Source: Lentinus brumalis
Taxonomy: Eukaryota; Basidiomycota; Agaricomycetes; Polyporales; Polyporaceae
DNA length: 64,000 nucleotides
NCBI GenBank assembly: GCA_001792895.1
Contig: MARA01000026.1
Location: forward strand, 186,001-250,000
Direction: 5' to 3'
The notes beneath the pieces were generated by a model. It saw only the letters and a list, made by a program, of their open reading frames with translations, made no database searches and was not told where the DNA came from. Shown here piece after piece: positions 27,103-50,732 of this stretch. Within the stretch, counting starts at the first letter, position 1, and each line of letters begins with the position of its first letter. A program made the position numbers and the translations under genes.

Positions 27103-28560
<1,458 letters not shown>

Positions 28561-28974: not shown

Positions 28975-29962
28975 TCAATCCCTTCCACGACCTCGTCGAG
29001 CAGCTACTACAGCCTTCTCCGCGAACCAAATCGCAGACATGACACCCGTCCAGTAGACGACCGCCTGAAATGCGGCATGAGCAAGGGTCAGGTCCACAAT
29101 TGGAGCGACCAGCATCAAGAGGCCGCCGAGGATGTAAGCTCCGAAGACTGTGAGCTGTCGTTCAATCAAAAGCGCGGTGAGGCTGCCCATCATCATACCC
29201 ATCAACGAGCGAAGTAAATCCAGGAAGAGCGGCACTCACTAGCTCACCGCACCGAAGGCCAGAGAGAGCCGGGGTCCAAAGACGGTAGCGATGGTGCGCT
29301 GGCCAACTGCCGCGTCGGCGTCCATATCGACAACAGCCCCGAGCGCGTGCACGCCCGCTGTGCAGAGGCCCAGGATATGGCCCTTCAGCGTGAGCATCCT
29401 TCGGTCGAGACGGCCGCCACCAGCTTTGTATCCTGCAAGATAGGCGAGGTCGATGATGACGCCATTAGACAGAGAGTCGAAGAATGGCTGCTCCTTGAGG
29501 CGGAAGGGCGGTGCGGAGTATTGCCAGGACAAGAACAGCAGCAGCGAGACCACGGCGACGTTGGATCGTCTGCCCGAGGTAAAAGAGGTAGCCAGTATCA
29601 CGGCGGTCGCGACCCATGCCGCAAGCGTGACGACAGCGTGGTAGTTCGGATCGAGTATGGTGCCCTCAAGGCCATCTATCTTCTTGCGAGCATTGCGGGT
29701 GTCAGTCTCGAAATCGTAGACGTCGTTGACACCGAAAACAACTAACGATAACAAGGATCAGCTTGGAGTTGTCATGCATAGCAAGGTCCTTACTGAGAGC
29801 CAGCGGGAATGACAGCGAAAGCAGTTGGAGGATAACGGCTCGCTTCCTCAGGAGAGATGTGAAAGCCTCCGGTGAATGAACCAGCCCAATCGCATACAGG
29901 ATGGGTCCAAAAAACCAGCCTACAGGCCGGCTAGTTCGAAGGAGTACCTTGAAGCTCTCCAT
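28975..29962 (-). CDS. UbiA-family prenyltransferase, left copy
   Basis: There are three exons, 29,794-29,962, 29,240-29,741 and 28,975-29,182, giving 292 aa with closed phases. This is an integral membrane prenyltransferase with the two Asp-rich Mg-diphosphate motifs: NDVYDFETD (NDxxDxxxD) and DMDADAAVGQRT (DxxxD). There are eight or nine hydrophobic stretches. The NDVYDxxxDxxNxRK pattern is closest to the lycopene-elongase/CrtEb-like and related UbiA branch, so a carotenoid, quinone or terpenoid acceptor is conceivable, but the substrate cannot be inferred. The apparent in-frame stops at about 29,232-29,240 lie inside a 57-nt intron (GTGAGT to GGGCAG). The mirror copy is at 49,745-50,732. 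Confidence 0.9.
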
Positions 29963-30175
29963 GTCGTGGTTTGGCCATCCAGACGCGGGATAGTAGTGAA
30001 GGAACGTCGTTCCAAGCAGGCGTGTACATACGTGGCAAGCGTGATCACGATCACATGACCGTAACGCGTCCGGACATGATAAGTAGTACTTAAGTACAAG
30101 GTACTTTGAGGCCTCTGTACAATCCTAGACCGGTATAAAACGTACTTTACATCGCTCATGTATACGTAAACGTCT

Positions 30176-30788
30176 TCAGAACACCAAGCCGTATACAACG
30201 CCCATGACCACCCCCGCGGCACCCAGACCCGAGTTAGCCATCCTGCTGGCCCCATTCTTCGGGATGTGCGTGACCTGCACGGCGAAGGCCTTGTCACTCA
30301 CAGTCTCAGTAAAGAGAGGGAGAGCCGCCGCAGTGCCCGAGGCGGAGATCACCGGCGTGCAGACCGCCACGCCGTCCTTGATCCCGCAATCTACCTGCGC
30401 GCGAATTCCCTCTACGTCTTCGACTACGTGAACGAAGTCGGGTCCCTCGACGAGCGTCGCTGCAGAAACCCGATCAGTTGACACGATGAGAGTTATACTC
30501 AATGGCGCGTACCAGCGGGGAAATCAGCGGACGACAGTGTGCCGCTGGCTTGTCCGGGAGAGAGGCGCCAGGTAGTATGGCTGCCGTCGACACCCAATAT
30601 GTCCGCAGACATGGCGACTGGTTCTGAGTCGGGAAGGTAAAGCGATACAATGTCGGCTTTGACGACATCTATGCCAGGTTCATGTCAGTGCTGGCGCTCC
30701 ATTTGTGTTGTATCATGGGCGACTTACAGGGAGCGAGGAGCAAGGGCACTGCCAGAGAGAGGCACGCGACGAAAGACTTGCTGGTCAT
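30176..30788 (-). CDS. Small secreted GPI-type protein 1
   Basis: There are three exons, 30,728-30,788, 30,513-30,668 and 30,176-30,459, giving 166 aa with intact phases. Exon 1 is a signal peptide (MTSKSFVACLSLAVPLLLAP). The body starts with VSLYLPD and MSADILGVDGSHTTWRLSPG, followed by EGPDFVHVVED and the Cys-containing CGIKDGVAVCT. The C-terminus ends in Gly/Ala-rich hydrophobic residues (AAGVVMGVVYGLVF), like a GPI-attachment or membrane tail. The family is common in Agaricomycete secretomes and has no assigned function. Four copies lie in this window with identical exon architecture. Confidence 0.85.
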
Positions 30789-30929
30789 GATATAGAACGA
30801 CGTAGTGCGGGAGAATGGGACTCGGGCTCTGCCGGAGGGTAGAAAAGGTAAAGGGTGCGTTGGGGAAGTCGAAGGAGCACCAAGAACAGAAGGGAGAAGA
30901 ATGAGTGACTTGTTAGCAACCTGCACCCA

Positions 30930-31560
30930 TATATATCTGGTACAGCTCAGAAGCAGTGCTCGTTCGTAACAACACAAAACGCCGGCGCAAGAGCCAAAGG
31001 AGGCCATGTAGCATCGGTCTCGCAACAAGCGGGACCGCGGTCAGCGAGAAGCGCGCTAACCAAGTTGCCAAATACGTAGGCGTTCCACCTGCCACCAGGA
31101 GAAATGCAGATGTCAAAGCCCCGATACCGCCGGAGAGTCGTAGGCCGTCCAACCAGAAACCAAAGATGCGCCCGAGACGACTGCTGCACCGGTTACCTAG
31201 TGGCAATATTTTGACGTGGGCGCCGTAGTACTTGACTGTTCATCCAGATCGCAGCACGAGTTTGAACGTCAATACATACACAACCCTAGCGAAACAGGTT
31301 ATACAGTACTCACAGTATTACAGAGCATGTGCCAGCCTCCAGGGCAACTCGACCAATACAAAGGAGGCGACGACGCCAAGACCACCAAATTGCCCAGCCT
31401 TGAACTTGAAGCCTCCTCGTCCTGGTCATTGCTCCCGTAGCGCATGGACATCCTGATACCTTCGGGTGCAATTGGGGTACCAGTACGCGATATGTGGCGA
31501 TCTGCACCGGGAGGCTGAGAAGTGCTTCAACCTGTACGGGGCAGATCGCAACCAGTCGCA
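30930..31560 (-). other. Possible small membrane-protein gene or remnant (copy 1)
   Basis: I do not recognise the family. Minus-strand segments with splice-like edges encode hydrophobic pieces: KAGQFGGLGVVASFVLVELP (about 31,325-31,410) and GIGALTSAFLLVAGGTPTYL (about 31,070-31,130). Related but diverged sequence occurs in the corresponding positions near the other GPI-type genes (34,700-35,240 and 45,960-46,480), so it belongs to the duplicated module. The exon chain is not resolved. Confidence 0.3.
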
Positions 31561-31840
31561 CCCTGTGACCTCCTGCACGTGTAAGTATCTCCTTTACTTG
31601 TGCGGCGAAACGCTATGATTGGCACAATCGCCCACCAACGTCCAAGAGTGTGCTCCGTCCCATATGGCGCGCTCGGAGCCGAAGGATGGCGGTCGACGAA
31701 CGTGCGAGGGCGCAAATGGGCATGGGGGCGTGCGTGAGGCCTCGAGAGGAGGATAAAAGCGAGTGCATCGCATCCGGACGAACCGCTCGCAGATCTCCTT
31801 CCCCTTCCCGCGTCCTTATCAGTGATACGTTGCGGCGAGC

Positions 31841-33063
31841 ATGCAGTGCTGGGCGCACCTCCTCCGAGCGATCTCGCTCGCGACTCTTCTCCAGGCTTCG
31901 CGTTCCTCTGGGCAGAAGATCATCTTGACCAACGACGACGGGTGGGCTGTCGCGCAAATCCGTGCACAGCGCGACTCGCTGGTCTCCGCGGGCTTCAACG
32001 TGAGTCGCGATGTTGAGAGACGAGGGGTGCCCCGCTGAACCGCCGAACTTCCAGGTCGTCCTATCGGCACCTGCGGACAACCGGTCCGGGACTGGCTCGT
32101 CGAGCGCGACACCGCAACCGTTGACCCAGCCGTGCGAGTTCAACACTTGCCCGACTGGCTCTCCGGCCGAGGGTTTCAACGCGAGCGATAGTGAGTTTGT
32201 GATTGCTCGCGAGAGACCATTCTTGTGTTGACGGGCGTCCGAAACAGCGAGGTTGAACTATGTGAACGCCTTCCCGTGAGAGTTGGCACTATGTGAGGAA
32301 TGACTACATACTGATGCTATGGCAGCGTCGACGCCGTGAGGTTCGGGATCCAGACTCTCGCACCAAAGTTCTTCGGTTCTGCCCCGGACTTCATCGTGAG
32401 CGGACCTAATGTCGGGAGTAAGTCGTCGACTTTGTGACGGTGCGCATGCACACTCACCTCTGTGCAGACAACCTGGGCACCGTCACCCAGAACTCGGGTA
32501 CAGTGTAGGTCATCTTCAACAGCTCTCTGAATTTCTGACTGACGCAACGGGGTAGGGGCGCCGCATGCGAGGCAGCTAAAGAAGGTCTCCCCTCGACTGC
32601 CTTCTCCGCGGCCACGGACTCTCAGATCTCGTACACGACACTCACCTCGTCGCCGAACTCCGGGCTCACAAAGTCCGCGCTCATCTACGCCCAGCTCACG
32701 ACGAACTTCACGAGGACTCTCCTCGCGCCTGCCGCGCGCCCCGTTCTCCCCGCCGGCGTGACGCTCAACGTCAACTACGCCGCGACGACCTTCACCTCGT
32801 CCGGGACGCCGAACGGCGACTGCACGAGCGCAAGCGACTTCACGTGGGTCTTCACCCGGCTGGTGAAGAGCTCGACCGCTGTCGACGTGGAGGACTGTGG
32901 GAGCACGCGACTGCCGGACGAGGGTACTGTAGTGGGCTCCGGATGCTTCGCGAGTGTCACAGTTATGAATGCGACCAGCAAGTCGGACGTGAGCGCGAGC
33001 GTGCAGGCGCAGGTGCTCCAGAGGCTCCAGCCGAGCGGCTTGTTGACGTGCTTTACGGGGTGA
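31841..33063 (+). CDS. Secreted SurE-like phosphatase/nucleotidase 1
   Basis: There are six exons: 31,841-31,999, 32,055-32,190, 32,248-32,275, 32,326-32,417, 32,468-32,504 and 32,556-33,063. They close in phase to 319 aa. An N-terminal signal peptide is followed by the SurE core: metal-binding NDDG (ILTNDDGWA), VVLSAPADNRSGTGSS, and the SGPNVGNNLGTVTQNSGT loop that completes the metal/phosphate site. It ends with NVNYA and a C-terminal domain. SurE enzymes are divalent-metal phosphatases acting on nucleoside monophosphates and related phosphoesters. A secreted form could scavenge phosphate. The paralogue at 35,365 is inverted, and a pseudogene lies near 45,200. Confidence 0.92.
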
Positions 33064-33950: not shown

Positions 33951-34566
33951 TCAGAACATCAGGCCGTACATAATGCCACTAACCACCCCCGCGACGCCCA
34001 GACTGGAGCCCGCAATCCTGCTGGCCCCGTTCTTCGGAATGCCCGTAACCTGCACCGCGAACGCTCTGTCGCTCACAGTCTGAGTCGTGACAGGGAGGGT
34101 CGCCACGACGCCCGAGCCAGAGAGCACCGCCGTGCAGACGGCCACGCCGTCCTTGATCCCACAATCCGCCTACGCATGTACGCCGTCTCCGTCCTCGACC
34201 AAGTGAACAGAGTCGGGTCCCGCGACCATCGTTGCTGCAAAAAGGACGTCATTCGTGCATGATGGAAAAAAGCTGTGATGCATAATGATCATGCGTACCG
34301 ACGGCGAAGTCAGTGATCAAGAGCGTGCCGCTGGGTTGTCCGGGGGAGAGGCGCCAGGTAGTTTGGCTGCCGTCGACACCCAGTATATCCGCAGACATGG
34401 CTAACCCGGGTGTGTCGGGAACGAAGAGCGACACGATGTCTGCGTTAACGACAACTATCCAAGGTGATGTTAGTACTGGCGGTCGACATAAAGCATCGAC
34501 AGACAACTCACATGGAGCGAGAAGGAGGGGAAGAGAGAGGCATGCGACGAGGGACTGGCTGAACAT
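33951..34566 (-). pseudogene. Small secreted GPI-type protein 2, nonsense-mutated
   Basis: The exon architecture is the same as in the other copies: 34,512-34,566, 34,299-34,454 and 33,951-34,234. Signal peptide MFSQSLVACLSLPLLLAP and body MSADILGVDGSQTTWRLSPG are intact. In exon 3 the codon at 34,170-34,172 is TAG where copy 3 has CAG (a Gln just before ADCGIK), a C-to-T change on the coding strand. Everything after the stop remains in frame to the natural end (GVVSGIMYGLMF), so the inactivation is recent. A truncated 100-odd-residue product lacking the Cys-rich half and tail would result. The DNA matches copy 3 into the 5' untranslated region. Confidence 0.85.
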
Positions 34567-34699
34567 GTTGTCGAAGGGAAGTGACGTGTCCTCTGCAGCT
34601 GCAAGGAGAAAGCGCAACCGGTGCGGCGTGAAAGGTCGAAAGAGCACGAACGAAAAGAAGAGGAAGCCGGATGAATCCACCGTGATAAACCAGCACTCA

Positions 34700-35364: not shown

Positions 35365-36551
35365 TCAATCCAGACACGCCAGAGGCAGACTCTGCAGCCG
35401 ATCAAACACCTGCCCTTGGAGCGTCGAGTTGACATCGAGCTTGTCCGACGCGCTGATCACGGACACGCTGGCGTAGCACCCCGCGTTCACCACTTTGGAC
35501 TCCGAGGGAAGGTGGTCCGAGCCGCAGGTCTCGGAGTCCGTCTCGAAGATGTTCCACACGAGCCGCGAGAACACCCACTTGTAGCGCGCGGACGTCGGGC
35601 AGCTGTCGATCGCGGCGTAGTTGACGTTCACGATCACCCCGGGAGGGAGCAGGGGGCCGGGTGTGGAGGCAAGGGCGGTGACGAAGCTCGAGGTGAGGTT
35701 GGCGTAGACCTGCGCCGCGAGCGTGGACGCGGCGGTGGGGTCGGACTCGAGCGTCGTGTAGGAGACCTCAGAGCCGCTGACGCCAGAGAAAGCTGCAGCG
35801 GGAACACCATTACGAGCGGCCTCGCAGGCAGCGCCGCTGGGAGCAGCCGGTCAGCGTCTTATTGAGCCGCGGGTCAGAGGACGCACACAGTGCCCGAGAG
35901 GAGGACAACGAGTCCTAGGTTGCCTGGTAACCGTCTCAGTGACTTCGCAAGACGACTGTTTGCAGGGGACTCACTGCCAATGTTCGGGCCGCTCACCACG
36001 AAGTCGGGCTTCGCGCCGTTGAAGAACTGCGGGGCGAGCGTTTCGATGCCGTACCTGGCTGCATCGACACTGCGCTCCCGATCGAATGGTGAGGATTGAA
36101 CGCTCGGAATGACATCACACTCACGGGTATCCATTGACGTAGTTGAGACGCGCTGCAACGCAGCATGAACAGAGGGACCCGGAAGGGGAAGGGGCCAGGA
36201 CTCACGGTTTGTCGCGTTCGCGCCGATAGCGGGAGAGCCAGTGGGACATGTGTCGAACTCGCAGGGCTCAGTGAGAGGAGTGGGGGTCTTGGACAGCGAG
36301 CTCTTGCCCGACTGGTTGAGGGCTGGAGCGGACAACACCACCTATGTGCGAGAAGTCAAGCCTGAATCTTCGCGTGTCGGGTGCGCCATCGCCTCGAACA
36401 TGGCAGCAACACGCACATTGTGCCCGGCCTTCCAAAGGACGTCGAACTGCTGCCGGATTTGCGCGGTCGCCCATCCGTCGTCGTCAGAGATCACGATGTT
36501 CAAGTTAGTCGCCGCGACGAGCACAGGAAGGGCGAGAGCAAGCGCGTGCAT
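35365..36551 (-). CDS. Secreted SurE-like phosphatase/nucleotidase 2
   Basis: There are six exons: 36,417-36,551, 36,206-36,341, 36,125-36,152, 35,975-36,069, 35,887-35,923 and 35,365-35,836. They close to 300 aa, and exons 2, 3 and 5 have exactly the lengths found in SurE-like gene 1. Signal peptide MHALALALPVLVAAT. The metal motif reads DDDG (VISDDDGWA) instead of NDDG: both Asp ligands are kept but the preceding Asn is replaced. The SGPNIG loop is kept, but the following Asn-rich loop is changed (LGLVVLLSGTV). It may therefore have altered activity. It is divergent from the aminotransferase gene at 37,063. Confidence 0.9.
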
Positions 36552-37062: not shown

Positions 37063-38871
37063 ATGGCTATCTCCCAGGTTCAGAACGGAGTTGCGAACGG
37101 CGATGCCGTCGCTGCTGCACCCGCCGAACTCGATGTATGTGCTCACACGACTGCTATTCTTCCTACCTGCTCACTCCAGACACAGGCCTCTAAGCTCACA
37201 ATCAACCTCGCGACGCAGCTCAAGGACGTCCCTCCCGCTGCGGAGCTGAAGTTTGGCCAGGTAAGCTCCATCCCTTCTAGTCCCAGGTGATCTCCCAGTA
37301 CCGCCCGTCTCTGACGTCCTTGGCAGGTCCTGACCGACCACATGATGGTCGCTCATTACGATCCCATCCACGGATGGTCCGCACCCGAGATCAAGCCTTA
37401 CGCGCCTCTCTCGATTGACCCCGCGAGCTCATGCCTGCAGTACGCGACGAACGTCTTTGAAGGAATGAAGGTATGCATTTTTTTGCTGAGTCTACACGAG
37501 ACTGGTGGAAGTGCAACTTCGCCCGCTTGCCGCACTTCCACGATATTGCCCGGCGAATGCTACACATGAAGGATCGCGCGACAAGCACATAACCTCTTCC
37601 GGAGGTGGTGGACCACGGAATGCCTGGGCCCTGCATCGATGTCACGCGTCCTCGCTGACTCTATCCCCCGTTCTGAGAGGTCCTTGAAGGAGGAATGCGG
37701 GGTTGCTTACATGCTTTGAGCGGACGAGCGGACAAACGTGCATTGTGGGGGCCAAAGCAGTGGATGCCGAAGAGCAAAATAGTGGAGACCTTGGTACAGA
37801 GGGCTTGCACTTCCACAATTCTCGTCACGACGCATTCTGTGATGAGAGCTCACATCGTATTATGTGCAGGCATACCTGGGGCCCGACGGCACACCCCGCC
37901 TGTTCCGTCCGGACAAGAACATGCAGCGCATGGAGATGTCTGCCGGACGCGTCGCGCTCCCTCCGTTCGACACGAACGAGCTGCTGGAGCTCATCAAGAA
38001 ACTCGTCATGGTCGAGAAGCGATGGATCCCGACCGTCAAGGGCCACAGTCTGTACATCCGCCCCACCATCATCGGCACGCGCAGCTGTACGTATCCTCGT
38101 CCCTCGCTCGTCCCATTGGGTGCTCATGAACCTTTGCAGCTCTCGGAGTCGCAGCGTCCGACTCCGCCACCCTCTACGTTATTATGTGTCCGACGGGTCC
38201 GTACTTCCGCAGCCCGCGCCCGGTCAACCTGCTCGCCGTCCAGGAGCACGTCCGCGCATGGCCCGGAGGCACGGGCGGGTACAAGCTCGCGCTCAACTAC
38301 GCGCCCACGTTCAAGCCGCAGCAGTACGCCGCCAAGCTCGGGTACGACCAGTGCCTGTGGTTGCTCGGGGACAAGATCACCGAGGCGGGCGCGATGAACT
38401 TCTTCGCCGTCGTGCGGAGAGACGATGGTGGTGAGTAACCTGCTCCTGCGCGTCGCTGCACGACGCTGAAATCATTCGCCAGATTTGGACGTGCTCACTC
38501 CGCCTCTGGACGGCACGATTCTGCCCGGTATCACGCGCGACTCGACTCTCGCGCTGTGTGCCGCGCATCCCTCGCGGACGACGCTCCCCGGACTCGACCC
38601 GTCGATCCGTCTGCACACATCCGAGCGCGAGCTCACTGTCCCTCAGCTCGCAGCCTGGGCTGAAGAGGGCCGTCTACTCGAGGTGTTTTCCGTTGGCACC
38701 GCCGTGGTCGTCGTCGCAGTGGGCCGCATCGGCTTCGACGGCAAGGACATCACCCTGCCTTCCTACGAGGGCTCCCTGGGCCCCGTCGGGCGGGGTCTGT
38801 ACGACCGCTTGACCGAGATCCAGGAGGGCCGCTTCGAGTGGGACAACTGGTCTGTCCCGTGCGACTCCTAG
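37063..38871 (+). CDS. BAT: Branched-chain amino acid aminotransferase
   Basis: There are six exons: 37,063-37,134, 37,186-37,260, 37,327-37,470, 37,870-38,086, 38,140-38,430 and 38,483-38,871. All phases close to 395 aa, the usual size. This is a fold-type IV PLP enzyme that transfers the amino group of Leu, Ile and Val to 2-oxoglutarate, the last step of their synthesis and first of their breakdown. Visible landmarks: YATNVFEGMKAYLGPDG, RLFRPDKNMQRM, IRPTIIGT, the PLP-Lys motif GGYKLALNYAPT, DQCLWLLGD and ITEAGAMNFF. No long N-terminal presequence is seen, so a cytosolic location is more likely than mitochondrial. Confidence 0.96.
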
Positions 38872-39011
38872 TAAACTCGAGCTCGGACGGACGGTCAACA
38901 AAAAAAGGAAATCAAGGGGAGCATACCACAGTAAATGTAATTCTGCTGTATTTAGTGGGGCATGTATGTCTAGATCTAGAGCTACAATTGTATACCGTGC
39001 ATAGGCACATG

Positions 39012-40483
39012 CTACTCGTCTCCCTCGTCTGCGGCTGCTGGTGCAGCCTTCCGCCCGAGCTTCTTCGCACCGCGCCCCAGACGATACCGCTCATTCACCT
39101 CGTCCGGCGTCGGCATGCGCTTCCGCTGCAGCAGCGGGACGTATGTGCCCGCCCGCTTCACCATCCCGCCCCCGAGCGGGACGCTCATCATGGCGCCAGG
39201 GTGCAGTGGCTCGACGCCCGGAGCACCAAGCGGGAAGTACTGCTTCGGGGGCTTGTGGTGCGCCTCCGCCGCCTTCAAGAAGTGCTCGTCCAGCGCCGCG
39301 GTGATGGTCGCGCGCTCGAGGTCGCAGATCATCCCTGGAAGCGGGCTCTTGGTCGACTCGCCACTCTTCGGGCTCGCTCTGTCCGTGCGCCAGTCGAGCA
39401 CGCCGTCGTCGTACCCGCAGTCCCACAGCATCAGCGGGAGCGGGTCCGCGATCAGGTAGTCTGGCTTCCCCGTGACGATCGGGGCGGCTCTTCGCCTTCG
39501 CGGAACGGCGGGAGAGGGTTCGCGGGATCGGCGTTGAGTAATGCGGTCATGACCGACGGCTTCTCGAGCCCGGAGCCGACGAGGAAGAGGATGGCCATGA
39601 TGTGCCGCACCATATTGTACAGGAACGCGTTCCCGCGCAGGTTGAAGACGTACAGGTCCCCGTGCGCGTCGGCGCGGTCGATCGTCGCGGAGAGGATGCG
39701 GCGCGTGAAGACGGTGATCTGCTTGCTCGCGTCGATCTTGCAGAGGTTGCGGAAGTCGCGCTCGCCGACGAGGCGCGCGGCCGCGTCGGACATCGCGGCA
39801 AGGTCGAGCCCGCGCGGGGAGAAGAAGTACTTGTAGTGCCGCCAGCGGCAGCTGAAGCGGGCGGAGAACTCGTCCGAGACGGGCGACCAGGCGAGGACAC
39901 GGATGGTGGGAGGGAGGACGTGGTTCAGGCCGAACACGTACGGGAACTCGAGCGCCGCAGATGCGGGCTCGGTGGGCTTGCTGTTGTTCGTAGGGGCTTC
40001 GTCAAAGTCGTCCATGAGGCCAAAGTCTCCTTCGAGACCTGGCCCGTCCTCCGACGGCTCCGCAGACGCAGTGGACTCCAGCTCTGTAGGTGCCGCTTCC
40101 TCCGGGGCTTTCGAGCCAAGGGTGCTCCTGACCCACAGACTGACGACCTGCCCGCCCGCGCTCACGCCCTTGTCCGTTCTCCCGCATCTCTGCCACCCAC
40201 ATCCCTCCAGTCCACCCGCACGGTCCACGAGCCTCGTGTGCACGAGTGCGTCGAAGAGCACTCCTTCGACTGTCGGAAGCGCGGGATCTCGTTGGAACTC
40301 CATTCCGCCGTAGTGGATGCCATTGTACGTGAACTTCAGCGCGATCTTGCGCTTCGGGTACGCGTTGAAGTCGAACGGCTTTCCCTGCGGTGTCGTCGCG
40401 GGTCTTGGTCGGTCATGGTGAGGGTCCAGATGCTGCAAACGCGCGATCAGCTCTTCTCTGGACCAGTTTTTGTAGGGCTCCAT
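39012..40483 (-). CDS. DEG1: tRNA pseudouridine(38/39) synthase, DEG1/PUS3 type (one-base frame break)
   Basis: A single exon encodes a TruA-family enzyme that makes pseudouridine at positions 38/39 of tRNA anticodon arms. It begins MEPYKNWSREELIARLQHLD (an in-frame Met at 40,537 is an alternative). Landmarks: KFTYNGIHYGGMEFQ, catalytic Asp in CGRTDKGVSAGGQV, RWRHYKYFF, and NAFLYNMVRHIMAILFLVG. An acidic/Ser-rich insert lies in the middle. The frame breaks near 39,481-39,484, at a run of four G on the plus strand. The remaining, clearly homologous C-terminus (PLPLMLWDCGYDDGVLDW to the stop at 39,012) lies in the next frame. One additional base would restore it, so either a consensus error or a recent frameshift is present. 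Confidence 0.9.
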
Positions 40484-41042
40484 TCGCGTGAATCTTGCAT
40501 AGGGTCGTAAGAGACGGTAGCTGAAGCCACCGGGCATGCAACAGACGAGCTATACGTACTGCAGATCGTCCGCAGAGATCAGTTCGAACAACGAGACGAG
40601 ATTCTGCGAGAGTCGAAGAATAAGAAGATGAGGAGAGAGGCAAGACTTCTGCTTGACTTCTGCCTTCAAGTCATGCGCGTCTATAGTCCCAGATCGAGGT
40701 TCATAGGATCTGTCCTCCTTCACATCTCTTCACGTCCAGTACGGTGTGCATATATATACAGAGACTGAGAGGGGCATCGTATACTGAACTCTCCTGCCTC
40801 CCTCCTCCTCCTCCGTCCTCCTCCCAACTCCCGCGTATACGCTAGTCCGTAGCGCAAAGTCGACCTCAGAGCCCATACCACTTGACGCACATACATAATC
40901 GAAGCCAAGTACGGTCTCCTTATTGTCGGCAATTTCCGCCTCTTCTAGCAGTCTTACAACACCGCGGCGCGCAAATGAGGCAGTGTACGACTTCGGACGG
41001 CGCGAGATCACATACCCTAGTTGTCCTTGACGTCCTACAACC
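40484..41042. promoter_or_regulatory. Divergent intergenic region between PUS3 and otubain genes
   Basis: This 559-bp region carries a pyrimidine-rich CCTCCTCCTCC tract (40,797-40,825) and a TATATATA stretch (40,750-40,757). No gene was recognised; the minus-strand frame through it looks composition-driven. Confidence 0.4.
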
Positions 41043-42583
41043 ATGAGCTCGCCGTTTGGAGACTCGACGAACACGAACGCGAACGCGCCTGCAGAACCGG
41101 CCCCTGCGTCCCGCTCACCCGAAGCACGTACGTCTGGCCCGGTGGCGGCGCGGAGCGGGCAGCTGCATTGACCGCATCTCCCCGCAGCGAGGGTGAAAAC
41201 GACAGATCTCCCCGATGTCGATGAGCAGTGGCAGGAAGTTGCTTCGGACGGCGACGTGCACATGGCCGACGCTCAAGGTGCGTGTCTTGTAACTCCGTAA
41301 CGCGTACGGCGTGCGTGCGGCTTTGTGGCTGATCTCTATTGCGCCGCGCCACACCCCGTAAGCAGACGATCTCCCGCCTGCAGGACTGTTTGATCATGTT
41401 GAGGTGCGTGCGCAAGCTTCTGCTCCCGATCGGCCTGCTCACGCTCGTCCCGTCATGTCACAGAGCTTTCCAGGCGACGCCCTGGACGATACACCCAGCC
41501 GACCACTTATCGCGCCTCTTGCGCCCATGCTCACGCTGCGCGAGGAGTACGTGAATGGATCGCAGGGCTTCGTCAAACAGATCGACTACCTCATCAGCGA
41601 AGGCTGGATCGGTGTACGGCGCACCCGCGGAGATGGTCAGTGGCGTGTCGTGCCCTTCCTCGCAATGTGATGCTAATGGTGTCTCGCTGACAGGTGACTG
41701 TTTCTATCGCTGTGAGTCCGCAACCTGCGTCGTCGCTTCTCGCCGAGGTATCCACGGATAGTCTCGCTCACGTCATGGTGCTTGCAGCCCTCGCGTTTGC
41801 GTACATTGAGAACATCCTCAACGCCTCGGACACGATGCTTGCCGCAACCGGCGCGCTGTCAGTTCTTGAGGCGTCTCAGCCGCAGCTCGAAGAGGTCGGA
41901 TTCCAGCGACTGGTGTTCGAGGACTTCTATGACTGTCTGGCCGGCTTGATCAACCAAGTCATCAGCCCGGGGCCAGATGGCCAGGTCTTGAATATCAACA
42001 CGTTGCTGGAAGCTTTCAACAACCCCGAAGGTACAGACCTCAAGTTTGACGGGCCTTGGGACGTCGCTGACGACCATTGCGCACAGTGTCGAACTCCATC
42101 GTCGTGTACTTGCGCCTGCTGACGTCCGCGGAGATCAAGACCAACCCGGAGATTGCGGCATTCCTCATCCATCCGGAGACGGGCGAACAGATGGACCCAG
42201 AGAGCTTCTGCAACAACTTCGTCGAGGCCGTCGGGAAGGAAGCAGGTGGGCGAGCTGATGCGGGTCGCTCTCGAGTCTCGTGCACGTCTTCTCATCCGGA
42301 CTCCGCAGATCATGTGCAGATGAACGCGCTCGCGACTGCGCTGAAGGTGAACGTCAACGTGGCGTACCTCGACGGCCACGACCAGCAGGGAAGGTGTCGT
42401 TTGTACCCTTTCAAAACGCGCCATTCACATTCCTGGAGCCGGTCAACTTGCTGTACCGGTGAGCCTGGTCTTCGTCCCTATCTGCGCGCGTACCGTGACT
42501 GATAAGAATGCATAAGCCCTGGACATTACGACATCCTGGATCGGCGCGATGCAGATCCTATCCCGCCCTTGCTCGTGCAATGA
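41043..42583 (+). CDS. OTUB1: Otubain-type deubiquitinase (peptidase C65)
   Basis: There are nine exons: 41,043-41,127, 41,188-41,277, 41,384-41,403, 41,464-41,635, 41,694-41,711, 41,788-42,030, 42,087-42,245, 42,309-42,458 and 42,517-42,583. Otubains cleave ubiquitin isopeptide bonds, typically Lys48-linked. The catalytic Cys lies in TRGDGDCFYRSLAFAY, with GDGDC split over exons 4-5 and the codon for the following residue over 5-6. The catalytic His is in RPGHYDILDRRD in the last exon. LREEYVNGSQGFVKQIDYL is the family's N-terminal helix region. In exon 8 one A appears to be missing at 42,391-42,392, where GGAAGG is expected to read GGAAAGG. Downstream residues VSFVPFQNAPFTFLEPVN fit the family only in the next frame. 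Confidence 0.92.
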
Positions 42584-43300
42584 CTTTGAGCAGTCGAATG
42601 GAACGGCGGAGGGCCGCACCGCGCGGTCAGTTGTGTCGCCATAGGTCATGCATATGTATGCTACGTCTCGCTATGCTGGGACAAGATTTGTAGCCTGTGT
42701 CTCATCCTGTATCTCCCAATCACGATATCACTGCACTGCTAGCATGAGAACGCGTTCAGGAACAAACCTAAAAGCAGGACACCCCGAGGCTCTGCCGCGG
42801 CTGTCGCGTTACGCAGCGATCACAGTCACGCAACGCGGGTGCGTCACGAGTGCACTGGTCCGTGCGGGAGCTCACGTGCGTGGCTGTCACATCTGCTTAC
42901 CTAACGGGTTGTTTAACTCTGTTCTCACCCGCGCAAGCCTGCGCCCCCACCAAGAGCCCTCTCACCAGCAGCCAGCCAGCCAGCCATTTTCCTCTGCCTG
43001 TACGCCGCCTGCGCCTAGCGCTGCCCCCAGTCCCAACACACTCGCCCACCACACACTCTCCCCCCTTCCTCAACTAAATCAAGGTGTGTATAGGACCTGT
43101 TGCGCTCTTATCTGATGCCAGCGCGCGATCGATACGTGTCCGCTGTCGTCGTCGACGACGGGGGCGGGGTGCGGGGCGGCGCGTCGCGCCCAGGCGCGTG
43201 CAGGGGGGACGCGTCGCGGTCGTGTTGGGCCCCTCGACGCGGCTCCACAAAGTCTCGCGACGTGTCGAATGTGTTGCTGACGATGTTCGTAATCCAACAG
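42584..43300. promoter_or_regulatory. Upstream region and probable 5' leader of the HMG-box gene
   Basis: The region contains a C/CA-rich tract with CAGCCAGCCAGCC (42,971-42,985) and CACACACTC. It ends in ...AATCCAACAG immediately before the ATG, resembling a 3' splice site, so the 5' untranslated region may be interrupted by an intron. No other gene was recognised. Confidence 0.4.
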
Positions 43301-44152
43301 ATGCCGAAGGAGACCAGCAAGACGACCAAGGTGCGCATATGTCCGCCCCAACTGCCTGATCTCGACTCCCTCCGCCCGGGGGTCGCTAGTAGGGCTTGTG
43401 TATGCGCTCGGAATGCTGATAGTCGTCTTCCATGTAGCGTAAGGCCGCCGAGAAGGCTGAGAAGGCGCCGAAGGGGAAGGCGAAGAAGGACCCCAAAGCA
43501 CCGAAGCGCGCCCTCTCCGCATACATGTTCTTCTCGCAGGACTGGCGTGAAAGGATCAAGGCTGAGAACCCCGACGCTGGTTTCGGTGAGTCTGCACGAT
43601 CGCTGGTGATCGTTGACACGTCGGAAGGCTGATATAACGCGTCTAACAGGTGAGATTGGCAAGCTCCTCGGAGCGAAGTGGAAGGAGCTCGACGAGGAGG
43701 AGAAGAAGGTATGTCCTTTATTTTACCTCTCCTACGATCCGCGCGACTTGTGCATGTGAAGAACGCCGTGTGGATGCGCATATACGGACCTCGACGGTCC
43801 GTATATGCGTGCTCCACCCACCCAGACTCGGTTTGCATCTTGTATGCACGGGTCCTTCCTGCAGTGTATTCGGCCACGCGTGGAACAACCGAAACTGTAC
43901 AGGAGCTCGACGCTGTGTATGCGCATCAAGCCGAAACCTTGGCTTATATTCAGAGACGCGTGTGTTCGATGACTGACGGTGTTTCCTTCCAGCCCTACGT
44001 CGAGCAGGCAGCAGCAGACAAGACTCGCGCCGAGAAGGAGAAAGACGAGTATGATGTACGTACATCTCATATGGTCGCCGAAGCTGTGCTTATGGGATGT
44101 GCAGGGCAAGAAGGCCGACAGCGCCGGTAGCGGTGACGACGACGACGAGTGA
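43301..44152 (+). CDS. NHP6: HMG-box non-histone chromosomal protein, NHP6-like
   Basis: There are five exons: 43,301-43,330, 43,438-43,585, 43,650-43,708, 43,993-44,055 and 44,105-44,152. All phases close to 115 aa. A basic N-terminus ([15 protein letters not shown]) leads into one HMG box: [20 protein letters not shown], then [20 protein letters not shown] and [10 protein letters not shown], and the protein ends in an acidic tail (GDDDDE). Such proteins bend DNA non-specifically and assist nucleosome reorganisation (for example with FACT) in the nucleus. Intron 3 (43,709-43,992) contains a strong hairpin. Confidence 0.95.
43777..43809. repeat. Perfect 14-bp hairpin inside intron 3 of the HMG-box gene
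   Basis: CGCATATACGGACC (43,777-43,790) and its exact reverse complement (43,796-43,809) are separated by a 5-base loop TCGAC. The hairpin lies about 70 nt inside the 284-nt intron, the longest in this gene. Confidence 0.85.
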
Positions 44153-44637
44153 ACACCATACCCCTCCGTCACCGTATGTCCGCTCTCTCCTACTGTTATG
44201 TCGTGTGTATGGCTGCTAGATATTGGTCCGTCGGTCGTCCCTGCATCGCTTGCTGCTCGTATAGTACCAAAACCGTAACACTCATCACCTCCTGCTCCTC
44301 TTTCTCTCTGCGATCGTTTTGCCCTCTATGTATTCTGGTACCTCTCTAGTCGTATAGCTACGTCTTTGGACGCGTGTGCACGTCGCGTCCGTTGTACAAT
44401 CGAACGACGTCCTGTAATACTAGACGACCTGTACTTGTTCGTTCGCTGGACCCGTTTTAAATTAATCATAGGACTCACTCTGTTGGAGGCACTCCGGCAA
44501 CTCGCACAAGAAAGCCGGCTCGAGTTCGACATGCCTATGGGTTGGGACTATTCATTTGTTACCGTACTTCAACTTGTTGCCCGACAACGGAGGCTTCGGA
44601 GCGCCCTTGATCAACGGATCAATCGAGACTCTTCGGA

Positions 44638-44905
44638 GTGACGGCGCTTACTCAGGTTCCTCCTCGACGACCACGTCGCCCTTCACATCTGGTTTGAGCT
44701 GTACCCTACTTACGATAGCTTGCAGCTGGCTATTGCTCGGTGTCGTCTTGAACGACGAGCTTCTTCAATGCACCGTATCTTGGACAAACCAGCGAGCTTG
44801 GTTACCGCCCCCTGTAGGCTCTCTAGCTTCTGAAGCTCAATCTGCTGCTCGCTCGTGAAGTTGTCGAGTGACGAGCGACCATTTGCGGAAGGTACGTCCC
44901 CGTAA
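44638..44905 (-). CDS. Unidentified gene fragment or small gene
   Basis: I do not recognise the family. The minus strand encodes a helical, coding-like segment LDNFTSEQQIELQKLESLQG continuing AVTKLAGLSK (44,760-44,880). After an apparent one-base shift near 44,775 comes ALKKLVVQDDTEQ. Following a short gap with splice-like GTAAGT, an acidic C-terminus LKPDVKGDVVVEEEPE ends at a TAA near 44,650. The amino-acid pattern is too regular for noise, but the 5' end and exon chain are not resolved. It may be a decayed or frameshifted gene. Confidence 0.4.
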
Positions 44906-45199
44906 GCATTGCATATGCTCTGTATATCGCAGAGGCAGCAGCGTTCTCATACTCGGAAGAACACAGGACCCTGGGCTTCGAGCCGACAGCAGAAAACATT
45001 GCCAGGATCGCGTAAAGTATAGCCGACCAGAATGCTGCAGACCGCGGGCAACGCACTCGGAGAGACCTTCGAGGATACATTCGCATTTTCCTCCTCCCGT
45101 CTTCACGGTGTGGCCAGGCATGTGGCCAGGCATGTCGCCACTGCTGCTATCAGAGAGACTGGCAACAATCACTACACCTTGCTTCGATCTGTGAGGCAT

Positions 45200-45760
45200 G
45201 TCCAGAGGCCGCTCGGCTGCAGCCTTTAGAGCACTTGTATCCTGGACGCTCGGGCCTCCGTCTGACGCGGCTGATCACATTCATCACCATCGCACAGGCG
45301 AAGCATCCGGAGCCCACGACAGCGCCCTCGTCCTCCAGACGCGTGGTCCCACAATTCTTCACATAGGCAGCGACCGAGCACTCGACGGGTCCAGTAGTAC
45401 CGGTGAACATTGATGTGGAGTGACGTTGAGCGTTACTTCGGCGGGTGCGAGGAGCGTCTGGTTGAGTTTCGTAGTCAAGTCGGCGCAGATGAGCGCGGAC
45501 TTCGTGAGACCGGACTTCGCGACGAGGTGAGTGTCGTGTACGAGGCCTGAGAGGCCGACACCGGTGCCCGAGTTCTGGGTGACGGTGCCCAGATTACCTG
45601 CGGAACAGGTGAGTATATGCGCACCAGAGAAAAGTCGAGGACTGACGTCCGACATTAGGTCCGCTCATGACTAAGTCCGGGGCAGAACCAAAGAACTGCG
45701 TTCGGTTCTCAGACCTCACGAGATCGATGCGGGTACAGCTACGTTTCACCTCCTTACGTA
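45200..45760 (-). pseudogene. SurE-like phosphatase pseudogene (copy 3)
   Basis: Pieces of the SurE-like gene are recognisable in order on the minus strand. They are FFGSAPDLVMSGPNVG (about 45,640-45,700), NLGTVTQNSGTG after an acceptor at about 45,603, SGLTKSALICADLTTKLNQT (about 45,465-45,525), APAEVTLNV, and NCGTTRLEDEGAVVGSGCFA (about 45,290-45,355). They match SurE-like gene 1 closely. The NDDG N-terminal exons are absent, segments between blocks are deleted, and frames change, so no functional enzyme can be made. It lies in inverted orientation relative to SurE-like gene 1, in mirror position around the housekeeping core. Confidence 0.85.
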
Positions 45761-45959
45761 GCGCAAAGTCATACTGACAGGACTTCACATAGTTCGACTT
45801 CGCCCCGAGCGAAAGCCAGATATGTACACGCGACCCCTGGCGAGCGACTGAAACTCACTCTCGATCATGTCGAAGACCTGCGCCGGAGAGTTAGTCGGGT
45901 GAGTATCGCACCGGTACGGGTCTCTCAAAGACAAGGGATCGCATGTAACAAGCGAGTCT

Positions 45960-46480
45960 AGGATTCGTCAACTCACACGGCCTCCGAGCGGGTGGCGGGC
46001 ACTGGGTCCTCGGAGGCTGGTTCCTGATCTTGAGCTTCGAAACCAGTACAGAACGCTACACAATGTACGTGAGAAGTGTCGTCCTCGCACGACGGGAGCA
46101 ATATGGCGGGCCTCGAGGGGCGAAGAGGTTTCCGCTTCAAGTTTTCCGGACATTCGATGTTCTTGCAGTCATCGCTCCGTCTGGCTTGTTGATCGGTTGG
46201 CGTAGGCTGGCGCATATATTTGCCGTACGTGAGTGAGTTTCACCTGCAACTCGGGTTGTGTGTTGACGCGTTGAGGTTTAGAGTCGTGCTGCGATCTATG
46301 AACAATCCATTCGTACGGCGCTCCTGTCAAAATGCGAGATCCCGCAGGAGTCTTGAGTGACTCTCTCTGCTTTCACTGGACGTCCTGCGATCTCCGGTGT
46401 AATTGCGGTTCTCGTGGGCGCATCTGCTTGTCCCTAAAGGCGTCTTGTGTTGTTGCGAATGGGCACTGCCGCGCAATTTG
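45960..46480 (+). other. Possible small membrane-protein gene or remnant (copy 3)
   Basis: This is the counterpart, on the plus strand, of 34,700-35,240. It encodes FDVLAVIAPSGLL (about 46,155-46,200) and shares long stretches of DNA with that copy, including GGAGTCTTGAGTGACTCTCT (46,346-46,365). It carries substitutions and indels, so it is probably decayed. Confidence 0.3.
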
Positions 46481-46622
46481 CCAGGTATATAGGTGGGTGC
46501 TGGTTGATCGTTTTAGCATCATTCAGCTCCTCTTCTGTTCTTTCGTACTCTTTCGACCTTTAACGCACCGGTTGCGCTTTCTCCTCGCAGCTGCAGAGGA
46601 CACGTCACTTCCATTCGATATC

Positions 46623-47237
46623 ATGTTCAGCAAGTATCTCGTCGCGTGTCTCTCTCTTCCCCTCCTTCTCGCTCCATGTAAGTTGTCTGTCGATGCTCTT
46701 ACTATATCGACTGCCAGTACTCACACCACCTTGGGGTAGATGTTGTCAACGCAGACATCGTGTCGCTGTACATCCCCGACACACCCGGGTTAGCGATGTC
46801 TGCGGACATACTGGGCGTCGACGGCAGTCAAACTACCTGGCGCCTCTCCCCGGACAACCCAGCGGCACGCTCTCGATCACTGACTTCCCCGTCGGTGCGC
46901 ACGCATCATGCATAACAATTTTTCATCATGCACGAATTGACGGATGTCTGCAGCAACGATGGTCGAGGGACCCGACTCCGTCCATTTCGTCGAGGACGGA
47001 GACGGAATACATGCGCAGGCGGATTGTGGGATCAAGAACGGTGTGGCCGTCTGCACTGCGGTGCTCTCTGGTTCGGCCGTCGTGGCGACCCTCCCCGTGA
47101 CCACTGAGACTGTGAGCGAGAAAGCCTTTGCGGTGCAGGTTACGGGCATTCCGAAAAACGGGGCCAGCAGGATTGCGGGCTCCAGTCTGGGGGTCGCGGG
47201 GGTTGTTGCTGGCGTTATGTACGGCTTGATGTTCTGA
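46623..47237 (+). CDS. Small secreted GPI-type protein 3 (one base missing in exon 2)
   Basis: Exons are 46,623-46,677, 46,740-46,894 and 46,954-47,237. Exon lengths equal those of copy 2 except exon 2, which is one base shorter: a run of four C at 46,848-46,851 where copy 2 has five. Beyond that point the expected residues (QPSGTLSITDFPV) continue in the next frame, and exon 3 (EGPDSVHFVEDGDGIHAQAD to the tail GVVAGVMYGLMF) is fully open. It is either a consensus undercall in a homopolymer or a recent frameshift. It is otherwise the best-preserved relative of nonsense-mutated copy 2. Confidence 0.8.
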
Positions 47238-48354: not shown

Positions 48355-49121
48355 ATGTTGAGCGTACCTATCATTCCTTTCCTTTATGTATCAACGCTCC
48401 TCGTGCCATGTGAGTCTTCCACAGAATCTACTCAGCCAATGTGACACTGACCAGAATTTCGATCGTAGATGCGGCCAACGCGGCGGTAGTGTCCTTGTTC
48501 ATCCCGGATGCGCAGCCTGGGCATGTCACAGCCAACTTCTTAGGCACCGACTCTGCAGGGCACACGACCTGGGCCATCGGGAACGGCCAGCCCAGTGACT
48601 CTGTCACGGCTACTCCAATCGGTACGCCCGCGACTTCACTTCCGTTGAAGCCCCGCTCATCTGTGTTGTGATCTTGCAGCAACGATGGTCGCAGGACCGA
48701 CCGACCTCCACCTCGTCGAAGATGTGCAGTCCGCGCTCGGGGCATCCTCCATGACGACTGCGGTATCAAGGACGGGGTCGCGGTGTGCACGATCGTGCTC
48801 TCAGGCTCCGCGAGCGTGAGGACCGTCGGGATCAAGACGGAGAGCGCGAGCGCGTTCGAGGTCCCGGTAGGGGCCACGGCGCCGCCTGCAGCTCCCTCTG
48901 CCTCTCTCACCGGGGCTCAGGCTCCTGGAGCGAGCGCGACTGGGACTGCAGCCACGGCAAGCGACACCGCTTCTCCTACGGGTGGAAGCGGTGCTGGTGA
49001 CGGGCCATCGGCGCAGACTGCGGATGGGCATGGAAACGGTGCAGGCAGCACGAAAGTGGCGAGGCCGGCGGTGATGTTCGCGGCCGCAGGCATATCGATC
49101 GTCCTTGCGATAATTTCCTGA
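48355..49121 (+). CDS. Small secreted GPI-anchored protein 4 (diverged, longer tail)
   Basis: Exons are 48,355-48,409, 48,469-48,621 and 48,679-49,121. Signal peptide MLSVPIIPFLYVSTLLVP; body VSLFIPDAQPGHVTANFLGT and TTWAIGNGQPSD; exon 3 has AGPTDLHLVEDV and DCGIKDGVAVCTIVLSGSAS. Unlike copies 1-3 it has a long Ala/Ser/Thr/Gly-rich region and a typical GPI-attachment end (AAAGISIVLAIIS). One frame change near 48,725-48,745 separates the first part of exon 3 from the conserved Cys motif and tail. A single missing base would explain it. The sequence is clearly more divergent than copies 1-3. Confidence 0.78.
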
Positions 49122-49398
49122 TGATATGGTTATGTTGGCTGTCGTGCGTCCGAGCAGCACAATGTCGTACTTACACATGTGCGCGTGAACACCAGTACTT
49201 CAAGACTCAAGTTACACGTCGCTGCCTGACCTTCTCACAGTCCCCAATACATACTCACTGTAGCGGTCCGGCTTGAGTCTGATCCCAGATCTCCCTTTTG
49301 CTGCAGTGTTCGCAGTCTTCCGAGCATTTGCCATTGACGACTTGGGCCGGAGAGGATGCCGTCTGATCAGGATTCCGCTCAAGACACCACAGTTATTC

Positions 49399-49489
49399 GG
49401 GCGTTTGGCACAGTGGTAGCGCGCACGCTTTGCATTTCTCAAGTTGAAGAGTGTGCGTGAGGTCGAGGGTTCAAACCCCTCAACGTCCA
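49399..49489 (+). tRNA. tRNA-Ala (anticodon UGC) with 19-nt intron
   Basis: The acceptor stem GGGCGTT pairs with AACGTCC (one G-U), followed by discriminator A at 49,489. The D-arm carries AGTGGTAG. The anticodon stem CACGC/GCGTG encloses the loop TTTGCA-T with anticodon TGC at 49,431-49,433. The T-arm is GAGGG TTCAAAC CCCTC. The loop is interrupted after the base 3' of the anticodon by a 19-nt intron (49,435-49,453), the canonical position for nuclear pre-tRNA introns removed by the tRNA splicing endonuclease. Confidence 0.9.
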
Positions 49490-49744
49490 GAGTTTTTGAC
49501 ATTTGGCGGTACGTTTTGTTGAAATCACAAACGCAGGAGGGGAAGGCGGATACAGTAGTGTTACTACTACACACTGCACTTCCATGCTACTAGGTTACTT
49601 CGACTTACAACACCGCGCCGCGACGGGACAACTTACAAGTTGACGCAAGGCCTCATGATTACGTACTCTACACAGGCGGAGTCATTTGAACGACGTTCCT
49701 TCACTACTTACTACATAGCCCCGTCTGGATGGCCAACCTACGAC

Positions 49745-50732
49745 ATGGAGAGCTTCAAGGTAATCCTCAGAACTAGCCGACCTGTAGGATGGTCTTTTGG
49801 ACCCATCCTGTATGCGATTGGACTGGTGCATTCACCGAAGCCTTTCACAAGAAAGCAACCCGCTATCCTCCAACTGCTGTCGCTATCAGTCCCACTGTCT
49901 CTCAGTAAGGACCTTGCTCTACATGATCATCTGCGAGAACTGATTATTTGTAGTTGTTTTTGGTGTGAACGACGTCTACGATTTCGAGACCGACACCCGC
50001 AACGCTCGCAAGAAGATAGATGGCCTTGAGGGCACAATACTCGATCCCTCCTACCACTCCGTCGTCACGCTTGCGGCATGGGTCGCGACCGCCATGATAC
50101 TGGCTACCTCTTTTACCTCGGGCAGACGATCCAACGTCGTCGTGGTCTCGCTGCTGCTGTTCATGTCCTGGCAATACTCGGCACCGCCATTCCGCTTCAA
50201 GGAGCAGCCATTCTTCGACTCTCTGTCTAATGGCGTCATCATCGACCTCGTCTATCTTGCAGGATACACAGCTGGTGGCGGCCGTCTCGACCGAAGGATG
50301 CTCACGCTGAAGGGCCATATCCTCGGCCTCTGCACATTGGGCGTGCACGCGCTCGGGGCTGTTGTCGATGTGGATGCCGACGCAGCAGTTGGCCAGCGGA
50401 CCATCGCTACTGTCTTCGGACCCCGGCTCTCTCTGGTCTTCGGTGCGATGAGCTAGTTAGTACCACTCTTCCTGGATCTACTTCGCTCGTTGATGAGTAT
50501 GATAATGCGCAGCCTCACCGCGCTCTTGATTGAACGACAGCTCACAGTCTTCGGAGTTTACATCCTCGGCGGTCTCTTGATACTTGTCGCTCCAATCATG
50601 GACCTGAGCCTTGCTCATGCGGCGTTCCAGTTGGTCGTCCATTGGAGCGGTGTTATGTCTGCGATTTGGTTTGCAGAGAAGGCAGTGGCAGCTGTTCGAC
50701 GACGTCGTGCGAGCGCTGATCGAAGGTCTTAA
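49745..50732 (+). CDS. UbiA-family prenyltransferase, right copy
   Basis: Exons are 49,745-49,904, 49,954-50,455 and 50,513-50,732, giving 293 aa. Exon 2 has exactly the length of its mirror paralogue at 28,975-29,962. Both Mg-diphosphate motifs are intact (NDVYDFETD and DVDADAAVGQRT), as are SWQYSAPPFRFKEQPFFDS and the hydrophobic helices. Intron 2 uses GTTAGT/GCGCAG and removes the in-frame TAG at 50,454-50,456. Main differences from the left copy are a shorter loop after LVHSP and a different C-terminal tail (RRRRASADRRS). Both copies look functional, arguing for retention after duplication. Confidence 0.9.

What the first reader, a model, noticed from the sequence alone, without database searches (positions are those of the whole stretch)
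28975..50732. Mirror-image duplicated module around a housekeeping core
Gene order outwards from the core is palindromic. To the left: SurE-like 2, membrane remnant, GPI-type 2, SurE-like 1, membrane remnant, GPI-type 1, UbiA. To the right, inverted: SurE-like pseudogene, membrane remnant, GPI-type 3, GPI-type 4, UbiA. Paralogues share exon lengths (UbiA exon 2 is 502 nt in both; SurE-like exons 2, 3 and 5 are identical in length). Copies 2 and 3 of the GPI-type gene match into their 5' untranslated regions. The module UbiA + secreted SurE-like + secreted GPI-type + small membrane protein has duplicated as a block, possibly more than once. If the grouping is conserved elsewhere it may be an undescribed functional cluster, for example membrane prenylation plus an extracellular phosphatase.
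Basis: partly seen in the sequence, partly recalled or inferred. Interest (0 to 1): 0.75.

Follow-up and report, generated by a model that had tools for sequence, protein, structure and literature searches.

The report
Inverted gene-block duplication in a polypore
In a wood-rotting mushroom fungus, a short stretch with a membrane prenyltransferase, a surface-protein-like gene and a secreted phosphatase was copied in reverse on the far side of a few housekeeping genes, and the copies then partly decayed and partly blended, which looks like ordinary genome evolution rather than a proven new functional cluster.

Summary
The mirror is real but imperfect. Left 28875-33747 matches right 50814-44589 in inverted, collinear pieces: UbiA, GPI1/GPI3, an upstream stretch, SurE1/pseudogene and 3' flank. 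The block reading holds only for these. SurE2 belongs to a separate, older SurE clade; GPI2 is an extra near-copy of GPI3; GPI4 is a distant paralogue. Divergence is uneven: the UbiA and GPI2/3 pairs are close, SurE1/pseudogene and GPI1/3 far. Within UbiA, sites separating left from right cluster in the ends, not exon 2, so I favour one inverted duplication followed by gene conversion; separate duplications remain possible. The right SurE lacks exon 1; three of four GPI copies have frame lesions, perhaps partly sequencing error. UbiA and SurE share a contig length in 11 of 13 polypore species compared (0.65 expected), but gene tags put them 23-30 genes apart in two Ganoderma genomes, and several SurE-bearing polypores gave no named UbiA hit: inherited neighbourhood fits better than a functional cluster. 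No second grouping was found in this genome.

The parts
28975..29962 (-). UbiA-left (UbiL), exons 29794-29962, 29240-29741, 28975-29182; 292 aa, intact frame
   Evidence: exon 3 end worked out from the 292-aa model
30176..30788 (-). GPI-type 1, exons 30728-30788, 30513-30668, 30176-30459; 166 aa, intact frame; 92% to L. brumalis P0192
   Evidence: 64% over 351 columns; coding past not shown
31841..33063 (+). SurE1, 6 exons, 319 aa, intact frame; 98% to L. brumalis P0072
33070..33747 (.). SurE1 3' flank; 33070-33319 and 33557-33747 are matched in the right arm at 60% and 62%
33951..34566 (-). GPI-type 2; in-frame stop codon in exon 3; nearest to GPI3 (match 33785-35161/47412-45975)
35365..36551 (-). 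SurE2, 6 exons, 300 aa, intact frame; older SurE paralogue, not a product of the inverted duplication
   Evidence: 3' end worked out
37064..44153 (.). core between the arms: class IV aminotransferase (one exon, below the Pfam cut-off), tRNA pseudouridine synthase, otubain C65 peptidase, HMG-box protein; ends approximate
44589..45937 (-). SurE pseudogene (relative of SurE1) with 3' flank; exon 1 absent, stops and frame changes
46081..46408 (.). right-arm partner of 31119-31449
46623..47237 (+). GPI-type 3, exons 46623-46677, 46740-46894, 46954-47237; frameshift in exon 2; an intact relative (P0193, 98.7%) exists in L. brumalis
48355..49121 (+). GPI-type 4, distant paralogue (43-47% to GPI1-3); frame break in exon 3
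49399..49489 (+). tRNA-Ala (TGC) with a 19-base intron, between GPI4 and UbiR
49745..50732 (+). UbiA-right (UbiR), exons 49745-49904, 49954-50455, 50513-50732; 293 aa, intact frame

Best explanation
An inverted segmental duplication followed by gene conversion and decay. One segment of about 5-6 kb (UbiA, a GPI-type gene head-to-head with SurE1, and the SurE1 3' flank) was copied in reverse orientation on the other side of a housekeeping core, in the lineage of Lentinus/Polyporus brumalis and arcularius. SurE2 was already an older paralogue. Later the central part of the two UbiA copies was homogenised by gene conversion between the arms, close to the split of the two species; a further copy between the GPI3 and GPI2 sites arose; the right SurE copy lost exon 1 and decayed; GPI copies 2-4 acquired frame lesions (some may be sequencing errors). 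Both UbiA genes keep the prenyltransferase motifs and SurE1 and SurE2 keep the SurE motif residues, so they probably work on their own as a membrane prenyltransferase (substrate unknown) and secreted phosphatases/nucleotidases. Shown here: homology, inverted collinearity, uneven divergence, gene trees, lesions. Inferred: conversion as the mechanism, which arm is original, gene functions.
For: Inverted matches in collinear order over the block, non-coding stretches among them. UbiL and UbiR each pair with one of two P. arcularius copies (98/92 and 99/96) and together exclude C. squamosus and L. tigrinus (99/97). Of 16 UbiA sites separating R+P.arc-a from L+P.arc-b, 15 lie in the ends and 1 in alignment columns 57-222, while 17 of 29 changes unique to one copy lie in those columns (Fisher p 0.0005; the cut was chosen after seeing the sites). 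Ends: R-L 81.4%, R-P.arc-a 95.5%; middle: R-L 93.8%, R-P.arc-a 92.5%. Intron 1 is 65% identical between arms (49 bases), intron 2 88% (57 bases), exon 2 94%; SurE 3' flanks 60-62%.
Against: Two divergence classes, which separate duplications would also give: codon-position-3 mismatches 39/281 for UbiA and 19/164 for GPI2-3, against 55/175 for SurE1-pseudogene and 61/164 for GPI1-3. In the UbiA middle L stays closer to its own orthologue (97.5%) than to R (93.8%), and R's reversal is only two residues of 160. UbiA 5' flank is 89% (53 bases), 3' flank 78% (107 bases), above the 60-62% of the SurE flanks. The stretch between UbiL and GPI1 has no partner (45%, random level). The ends-only tree leaves L, R, C. 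squamosus and L. tigrinus unresolved. GPI4 must have been lost on the left or inserted on the right. Only proteins, no DNA, were at hand for P. arcularius.
Confidence: 0.6

Rival explanations
1. Stepwise build-up: SurE1 with its GPI neighbour was copied in reverse first; UbiA alone (about 1.1 kb) and GPI3/GPI2 were copied later, UbiA landing by chance in mirror position. The ancestral order was SurE - core - GPI4 - UbiA.
For: Two divergence classes; no match between UbiL and GPI1. Ganoderma sinense tags run SurE 11795, 11801, GPI-like 11817, UbiA 11824, like SurE1/SurE2 - core - GPI4 - UbiR in the window. In Cerioporus SurE and two GPI proteins share one contig length (115376), UbiA has another (105648).
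Against: Inverted collinearity over several pieces and the mosaic within UbiA. Where the core genes lie in Ganoderma is unknown. That tags follow gene order is an assumption.
Confidence: 0.28
2. A functional cluster: UbiA, secreted SurE phosphatase and the GPI-type protein act in one pathway, so the genes are kept together and duplicated together.
For: UbiA and SurE on one contig length in 11 of 13 species, 0.65 expected; GPI and SurE on one contig length in L. brumalis and C. squamosus.
Against: 23-30 gene tags between UbiA and SurE in G. sinense and G. adspersum. No named UbiA hit for SurE-bearing Dichomitus squalens, Fomes fomentarius, Earliella scabrosa, Daedaleopsis nitida and Pilatotrama ljubarskyi (clustering at 90% may hide some). 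No other UbiA-SurE-GPI grouping found in the 53-Mb genome; the nearest other UbiA-SurE pair is 855 kb apart. Decay of the right SurE and lesions in GPI copies. No expression data were available.
Confidence: 0.08
3. Assembly product: the mirror arms or their lesions come from uncollapsed haplotypes or errors in a long-read draft.
For: The window's genome (53.42 Mb, 136 contigs) resembles the published P. brumalis draft (53 Mb, PacBio, Canu, 138 contigs; PMC5511909, whole text), while a monokaryon assembled to 45.72 Mb (PMC6055342, passages). That the window is from that draft is inference.
Against: Arms differ by about 6-40% and P. arcularius has both UbiA copies as separate proteins; L. brumalis records hold relatives of GPI1, GPI3 and SurE1 on one contig length, 161254.
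Confidence: 0.03

Closest known systems
Inverted segmental duplication with arm-to-arm gene conversion (as in sex-chromosome palindromes)
   Same: Inverted homologous arms around a spacer; the central part of one gene pair more alike than its edges.
   Different: Arms are only about 60-94% identical, interrupted by unmatched stretches, an extra GPI copy and decay. Palindrome papers were seen in a search listing only; the comparison rests on recall.
Fungal UbiA-type prenyltransferases (for example LaPT3 of Laetiporus sulphureus, PMC12790560, passages seen)
   Same: UbiA domain (PF01040) with NDxxDxxxD and DxxxD motifs in both window copies.
   Different: The P. arcularius orthologue P0001 scores best with bacterial 'prenyltransferase' models PRK12875 and PRK13105, far below their cut-offs. 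The LaPT sequences were not compared.
SurE 5'/3'-nucleotidase (PF01975; solved structures such as 2wqk)
   Same: SurE1 has the domain at 119.7 bits; D32, D33, G34, S64, S133, G134, N136 and G138 are kept in at least 97% of 121 rows, SurE2 included; the L. brumalis orthologue P0072 matches 2wqk.
   Different: Secreted-type N terminus and conserved cysteines; P0072 stays under the NCBIfam surE cut-off (116.9 of 135.1).

Membership tests
Single-event block (mirror module) duplication | all arm genes collinear in inverted order | tested here: not met
   UbiA, GPI1/3, upstream piece, SurE1/pseudogene and flank are collinear; GPI2, SurE2 and GPI4 have no partner
Single-event block (mirror module) duplication | equal neutral divergence along the block | tested here: not met
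   would be explained if gene conversion acted
Inverted duplication with gene conversion | left/right signal lost in part of the copies while kept in the rest | tested here: met
   UbiA, 15 of 16 diagnostic sites in the ends; protein level only for P. arcularius
Inverted duplication with gene conversion | copies more alike within than between species in the converted part | tested here: inconclusive
   R: 93.8% to L against 92.5% to its orthologue; L: 93.8% to R against 97.5% to its orthologue
Conserved functional gene cluster | linkage in relatives beyond random placement | tested here: met
   11 of 13 species by equal contig length; species share ancestry, so they are not independent
Conserved functional gene cluster | tight adjacency in relatives | tested here: not met
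   tags 11795-11824 and 007565-007595 in two Ganoderma genomes, taken as gene order
Conserved functional gene cluster | co-expression or joint function | not testable with these tools
   no expression data held
UbiA prenyltransferase (PF01040) | domain above cut-off and both Asp-rich motifs | tested here: met
   UbiR 59 bits against cut-off 34.2; motifs in both copies, invariant in 29 relatives
SurE (PF01975) | domain above cut-off and conserved motif residues | tested here: met
   SurE1 119.7 bits against 22.1; SurE2 by alignment only
GPI-anchored protein | signal peptide and C-terminal GPI signal | not tested
   hydrophobic ends seen in translation only; no Pfam match for GPI1, no NCBIfam match for relatives P0192 and P0204; model of P0192 unusable, pLDDT 48

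The most novel reading that the evidence does not exclude
UbiA and secreted SurE genes, with a fast-evolving GPI-type partner, form a loose but old conserved neighbourhood in Polyporales that reflects a shared pathway, for example prenylated metabolites whose phosphate release or surface display is handled outside the cell; the inverted arms then keep two UbiA isoforms that differ at their ends and share a converted catalytic core.
Probability: 0.08. Interest if true: 0.6.

Novelty: new member of a known kind. Interest (0 to 1): 0.3.

Why it matters
It shows how a neighbourhood that looks like a mirror-image module can arise from inverted duplication, probable arm-to-arm gene conversion and decay, with an older paralogue (SurE2) mimicking a second copy. 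The UbiA-SurE linkage in polypores is a testable lead, and the two UbiA copies with a homogenised middle and distinct ends would be a small case of concerted evolution in a basidiomycete.

Tried and rejected
Two full module copies on the left arm: rejected by the SurE tree. A recent block of uniform age: rejected by divergence. A repeated element in the right-arm spacer 47420-48340: only its own place matched in the genome. A second cluster elsewhere in the genome: none found; UbiA, SurE and GPI relatives lie on different contigs or 855 kb apart; those searches go exon by exon and give lower bounds. A motif scan of four 10-kb loci around SurE and GPI relatives is weak: it missed the GPI relatives that are known to be in two of them, and gave one NDxxDxxxD string in a frame that does not look like UbiA. 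Function of the GPI-type protein by fold: model too poor, no fold search run. Literature: no title listed in searches is about this grouping; the lists of 43, 49, 50 and 62 were capped. The leaf-cutting-ant proteome (PMC7877906, two passages) lists fungal 'acid phosphatase, nucleotidase' proteins without naming SurE.

Limits of the linkage count: contigs count as the same when their printed lengths are equal; the SurE table shows the best 120 of 751; 10 of 23 named UbiA entries had no listed SurE and were left out; genome size was set at 35 Mb; with six SurE genes per genome the probability is 4e-10 instead of 3e-16; in T. versicolor one of the two SurE contigs is from another assembly. Tree rows were chosen: 22 of 71 UbiA hits, 47 of the 120 listed SurE hits, 11 of 13 GPI hits.

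Errors mended on the way: the exon joins and the GPI coordinates were wrong and were redone; the GPI1 query was a 168-aa draft, two residues longer than the model. In some searches the last 25 coding bases of UbiL were counted as flank.
Full report
What is there. The window is G000:C56:186001-250000 of a 53.4-Mb genome in 136 contigs. Its SurE1 is 98% identical to a Lentinus brumalis protein and its UbiA copies are 94% and 95% identical to two Polyporus arcularius proteins. Size and contig number resemble the published PacBio draft of P. brumalis (53 Mb, 138 contigs; PMC5511909, whole text); that this is the same assembly is inference.

The mirror. Self-comparison gives inverted matches UbiA/UbiA, GPI1/GPI3, SurE1/pseudogene and GPI2/GPI3. 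A more sensitive comparison shows inverted pieces in collinear order from 28875-33747 to 50814-44589, some of them non-coding, and an extra match, 33785-35161 to 47412-45975, that breaks the mirror order; weaker matches tie GPI4 to GPI1 and GPI2 and SurE2 to the pseudogene. The pieces are interrupted: the stretch between UbiL and GPI1, the SurE1 promoter with exon 1, and 33320-33556 have no partner. Thirty pairs of unrelated stretches aligned at 43% on average, 55% at most, below the 60-62% of the SurE flanks; the GPI1 3' flank (45%) is at that random level.

Gene state. Intact frames: UbiL 292 aa, UbiR 293 aa, SurE1 319 aa, SurE2 300 aa, GPI1 166 aa. Broken: the right SurE has no exon 1 and has stops and frame changes; GPI2 has an in-frame stop, GPI3 a frameshift in exon 2, GPI4 a frame break in exon 3. 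An L. brumalis protein (P0193) matches GPI3 at 98.7% and is intact, so the GPI3 lesion may be strain-specific or a sequencing error.

Gene trees. UbiA (24 rows): R with P. arcularius copy a (99/96), L with copy b (98/92), all four together (99/97) apart from C. squamosus and L. tigrinus. SurE (49 rows): SurE1 with L. brumalis and C. squamosus; SurE2 in another clade with T. versicolor_b, T. elegans_b, T. meyenii and Lenzites_b and _c (100/99), so SurE1 and SurE2 split before the mirror formed. GPI (15 rows, 1 of 12 inner branches well supported): GPI2 and GPI3 with L. brumalis b (91/95), GPI1 with L. brumalis a (93/100), GPI4 with G. sinense (88/98) on long branches, although its identity to that protein (44%) is no higher than to GPI1-3 (43-47%).

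Divergence. Codon-position-3 mismatches: UbiL-UbiR 39/281, GPI2-GPI3 19/164, SurE1-pseudogene 55/175, GPI1-GPI3 61/164. The first two differ from the last two (p at most 1.1e-5 in the four comparisons made) and not from each other (p 0.56). Read plainly this means two ages. Inside UbiA the pattern is mosaic: 15 of 16 sites that separate the left from the right copies of both species lie in the ends, 1 in alignment columns 57-222, where 17 of 29 single-copy changes fall (Fisher p 0.0005; cut chosen after seeing the sites). Ends: R is 81.4% to L and 95.5% to its orthologue; middle: 93.8% and 92.5%; but L in the middle is 97.5% to its orthologue and 93.8% to R, so the middle is close to a star of four. 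Intron 1 is 65% identical, intron 2 88%, exon 2 94%, 5' flank 89%, 3' flank 78%. I read this as conversion of the exon 2-intron 2 part near the time of the species split. Against it stand the high 5' flank, the closeness of L to its orthologue, and the ends-only tree, which leaves the order of L, R, C. squamosus and L. tigrinus open.

Linkage elsewhere. In 13 species with a named UbiA hit and a listed SurE hit, 11 have a UbiA and a SurE on contigs of the same printed length; the exceptions, C. squamosus and G. leucocontextum, have contigs of about 11-115 kb. Random placement would give 0.65; the probability is 3e-16, or 4e-10 with six SurE genes per genome. The species share ancestry, so this speaks against random placement and not for repeated selection. 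In T. versicolor the linked gene is of the SurE2 type. In G. sinense the tags run SurE 11795 and 11801, GPI-like 11817, UbiA 11824; in G. adspersum UbiA 007565 and SurE 007592, 007593, 007595. So linkage is old but loose. No named UbiA hit appears for SurE-bearing Dichomitus, Fomes, Earliella, Daedaleopsis or Pilatotrama. In the window's own genome no other place was found to hold the three families together.

Functions. UbiR: PF01040 at 59 bits, both Asp-rich motifs; for the orthologue P0001 the nearest NCBIfam models are bacterial prenyltransferases far below cut-off and the only solved relative listed is 4tq3. Substrate unknown; LaPT3 of Laetiporus prenylates hydroquinone (PMC12790560, passages), which says nothing direct about this gene. 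SurE1: PF01975 at 119.7 bits, motif residues conserved. The GPI-type family has no Pfam or NCBIfam match and no usable model.

Verdict. A real, imperfect inverted duplication with probable gene conversion and decay: a new member of a known kind. The functional-cluster idea remains possible but weakly supported.

Noticed in passing
window 1-20792: A 10.2-kb tandem duplication: 1-10588 matches 10174-20792 at 96%, with the start of a third copy (20376-20792, 97%). Of 43 gaps between the copies 22 are one base; it may be a real tandem or an assembly/haplotype effect.
   Followed up: partly
window 27794-28489 (+): End of a class II fungal peroxidase gene (Peroxidase_ext, 99 bits) directly beside UbiL.
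   Followed up: no
window 50976-51560 (+): DUF6533 membrane-protein gene directly outside UbiR.
   Followed up: no
window 22533-23225 (-) and 58651-62425 (-): A ribosomal RNA adenine dimethylase exon, and pieces of a class I (probably leucyl) tRNA synthetase gene.
   Followed up: no
window 49399-49489 (+): tRNA-Ala (TGC) with a 19-base intron, missed by ARAGORN in bacterial mode, found by Rfam and by ARAGORN with introns allowed.
   Followed up: yes
window 30176-30788: GPI1 differs by about 8% in protein from its L. brumalis relative P0192, while SurE1 differs by 2% and GPI3 by about 1% from theirs: GPI1 may evolve fast or be polymorphic.
   Followed up: no
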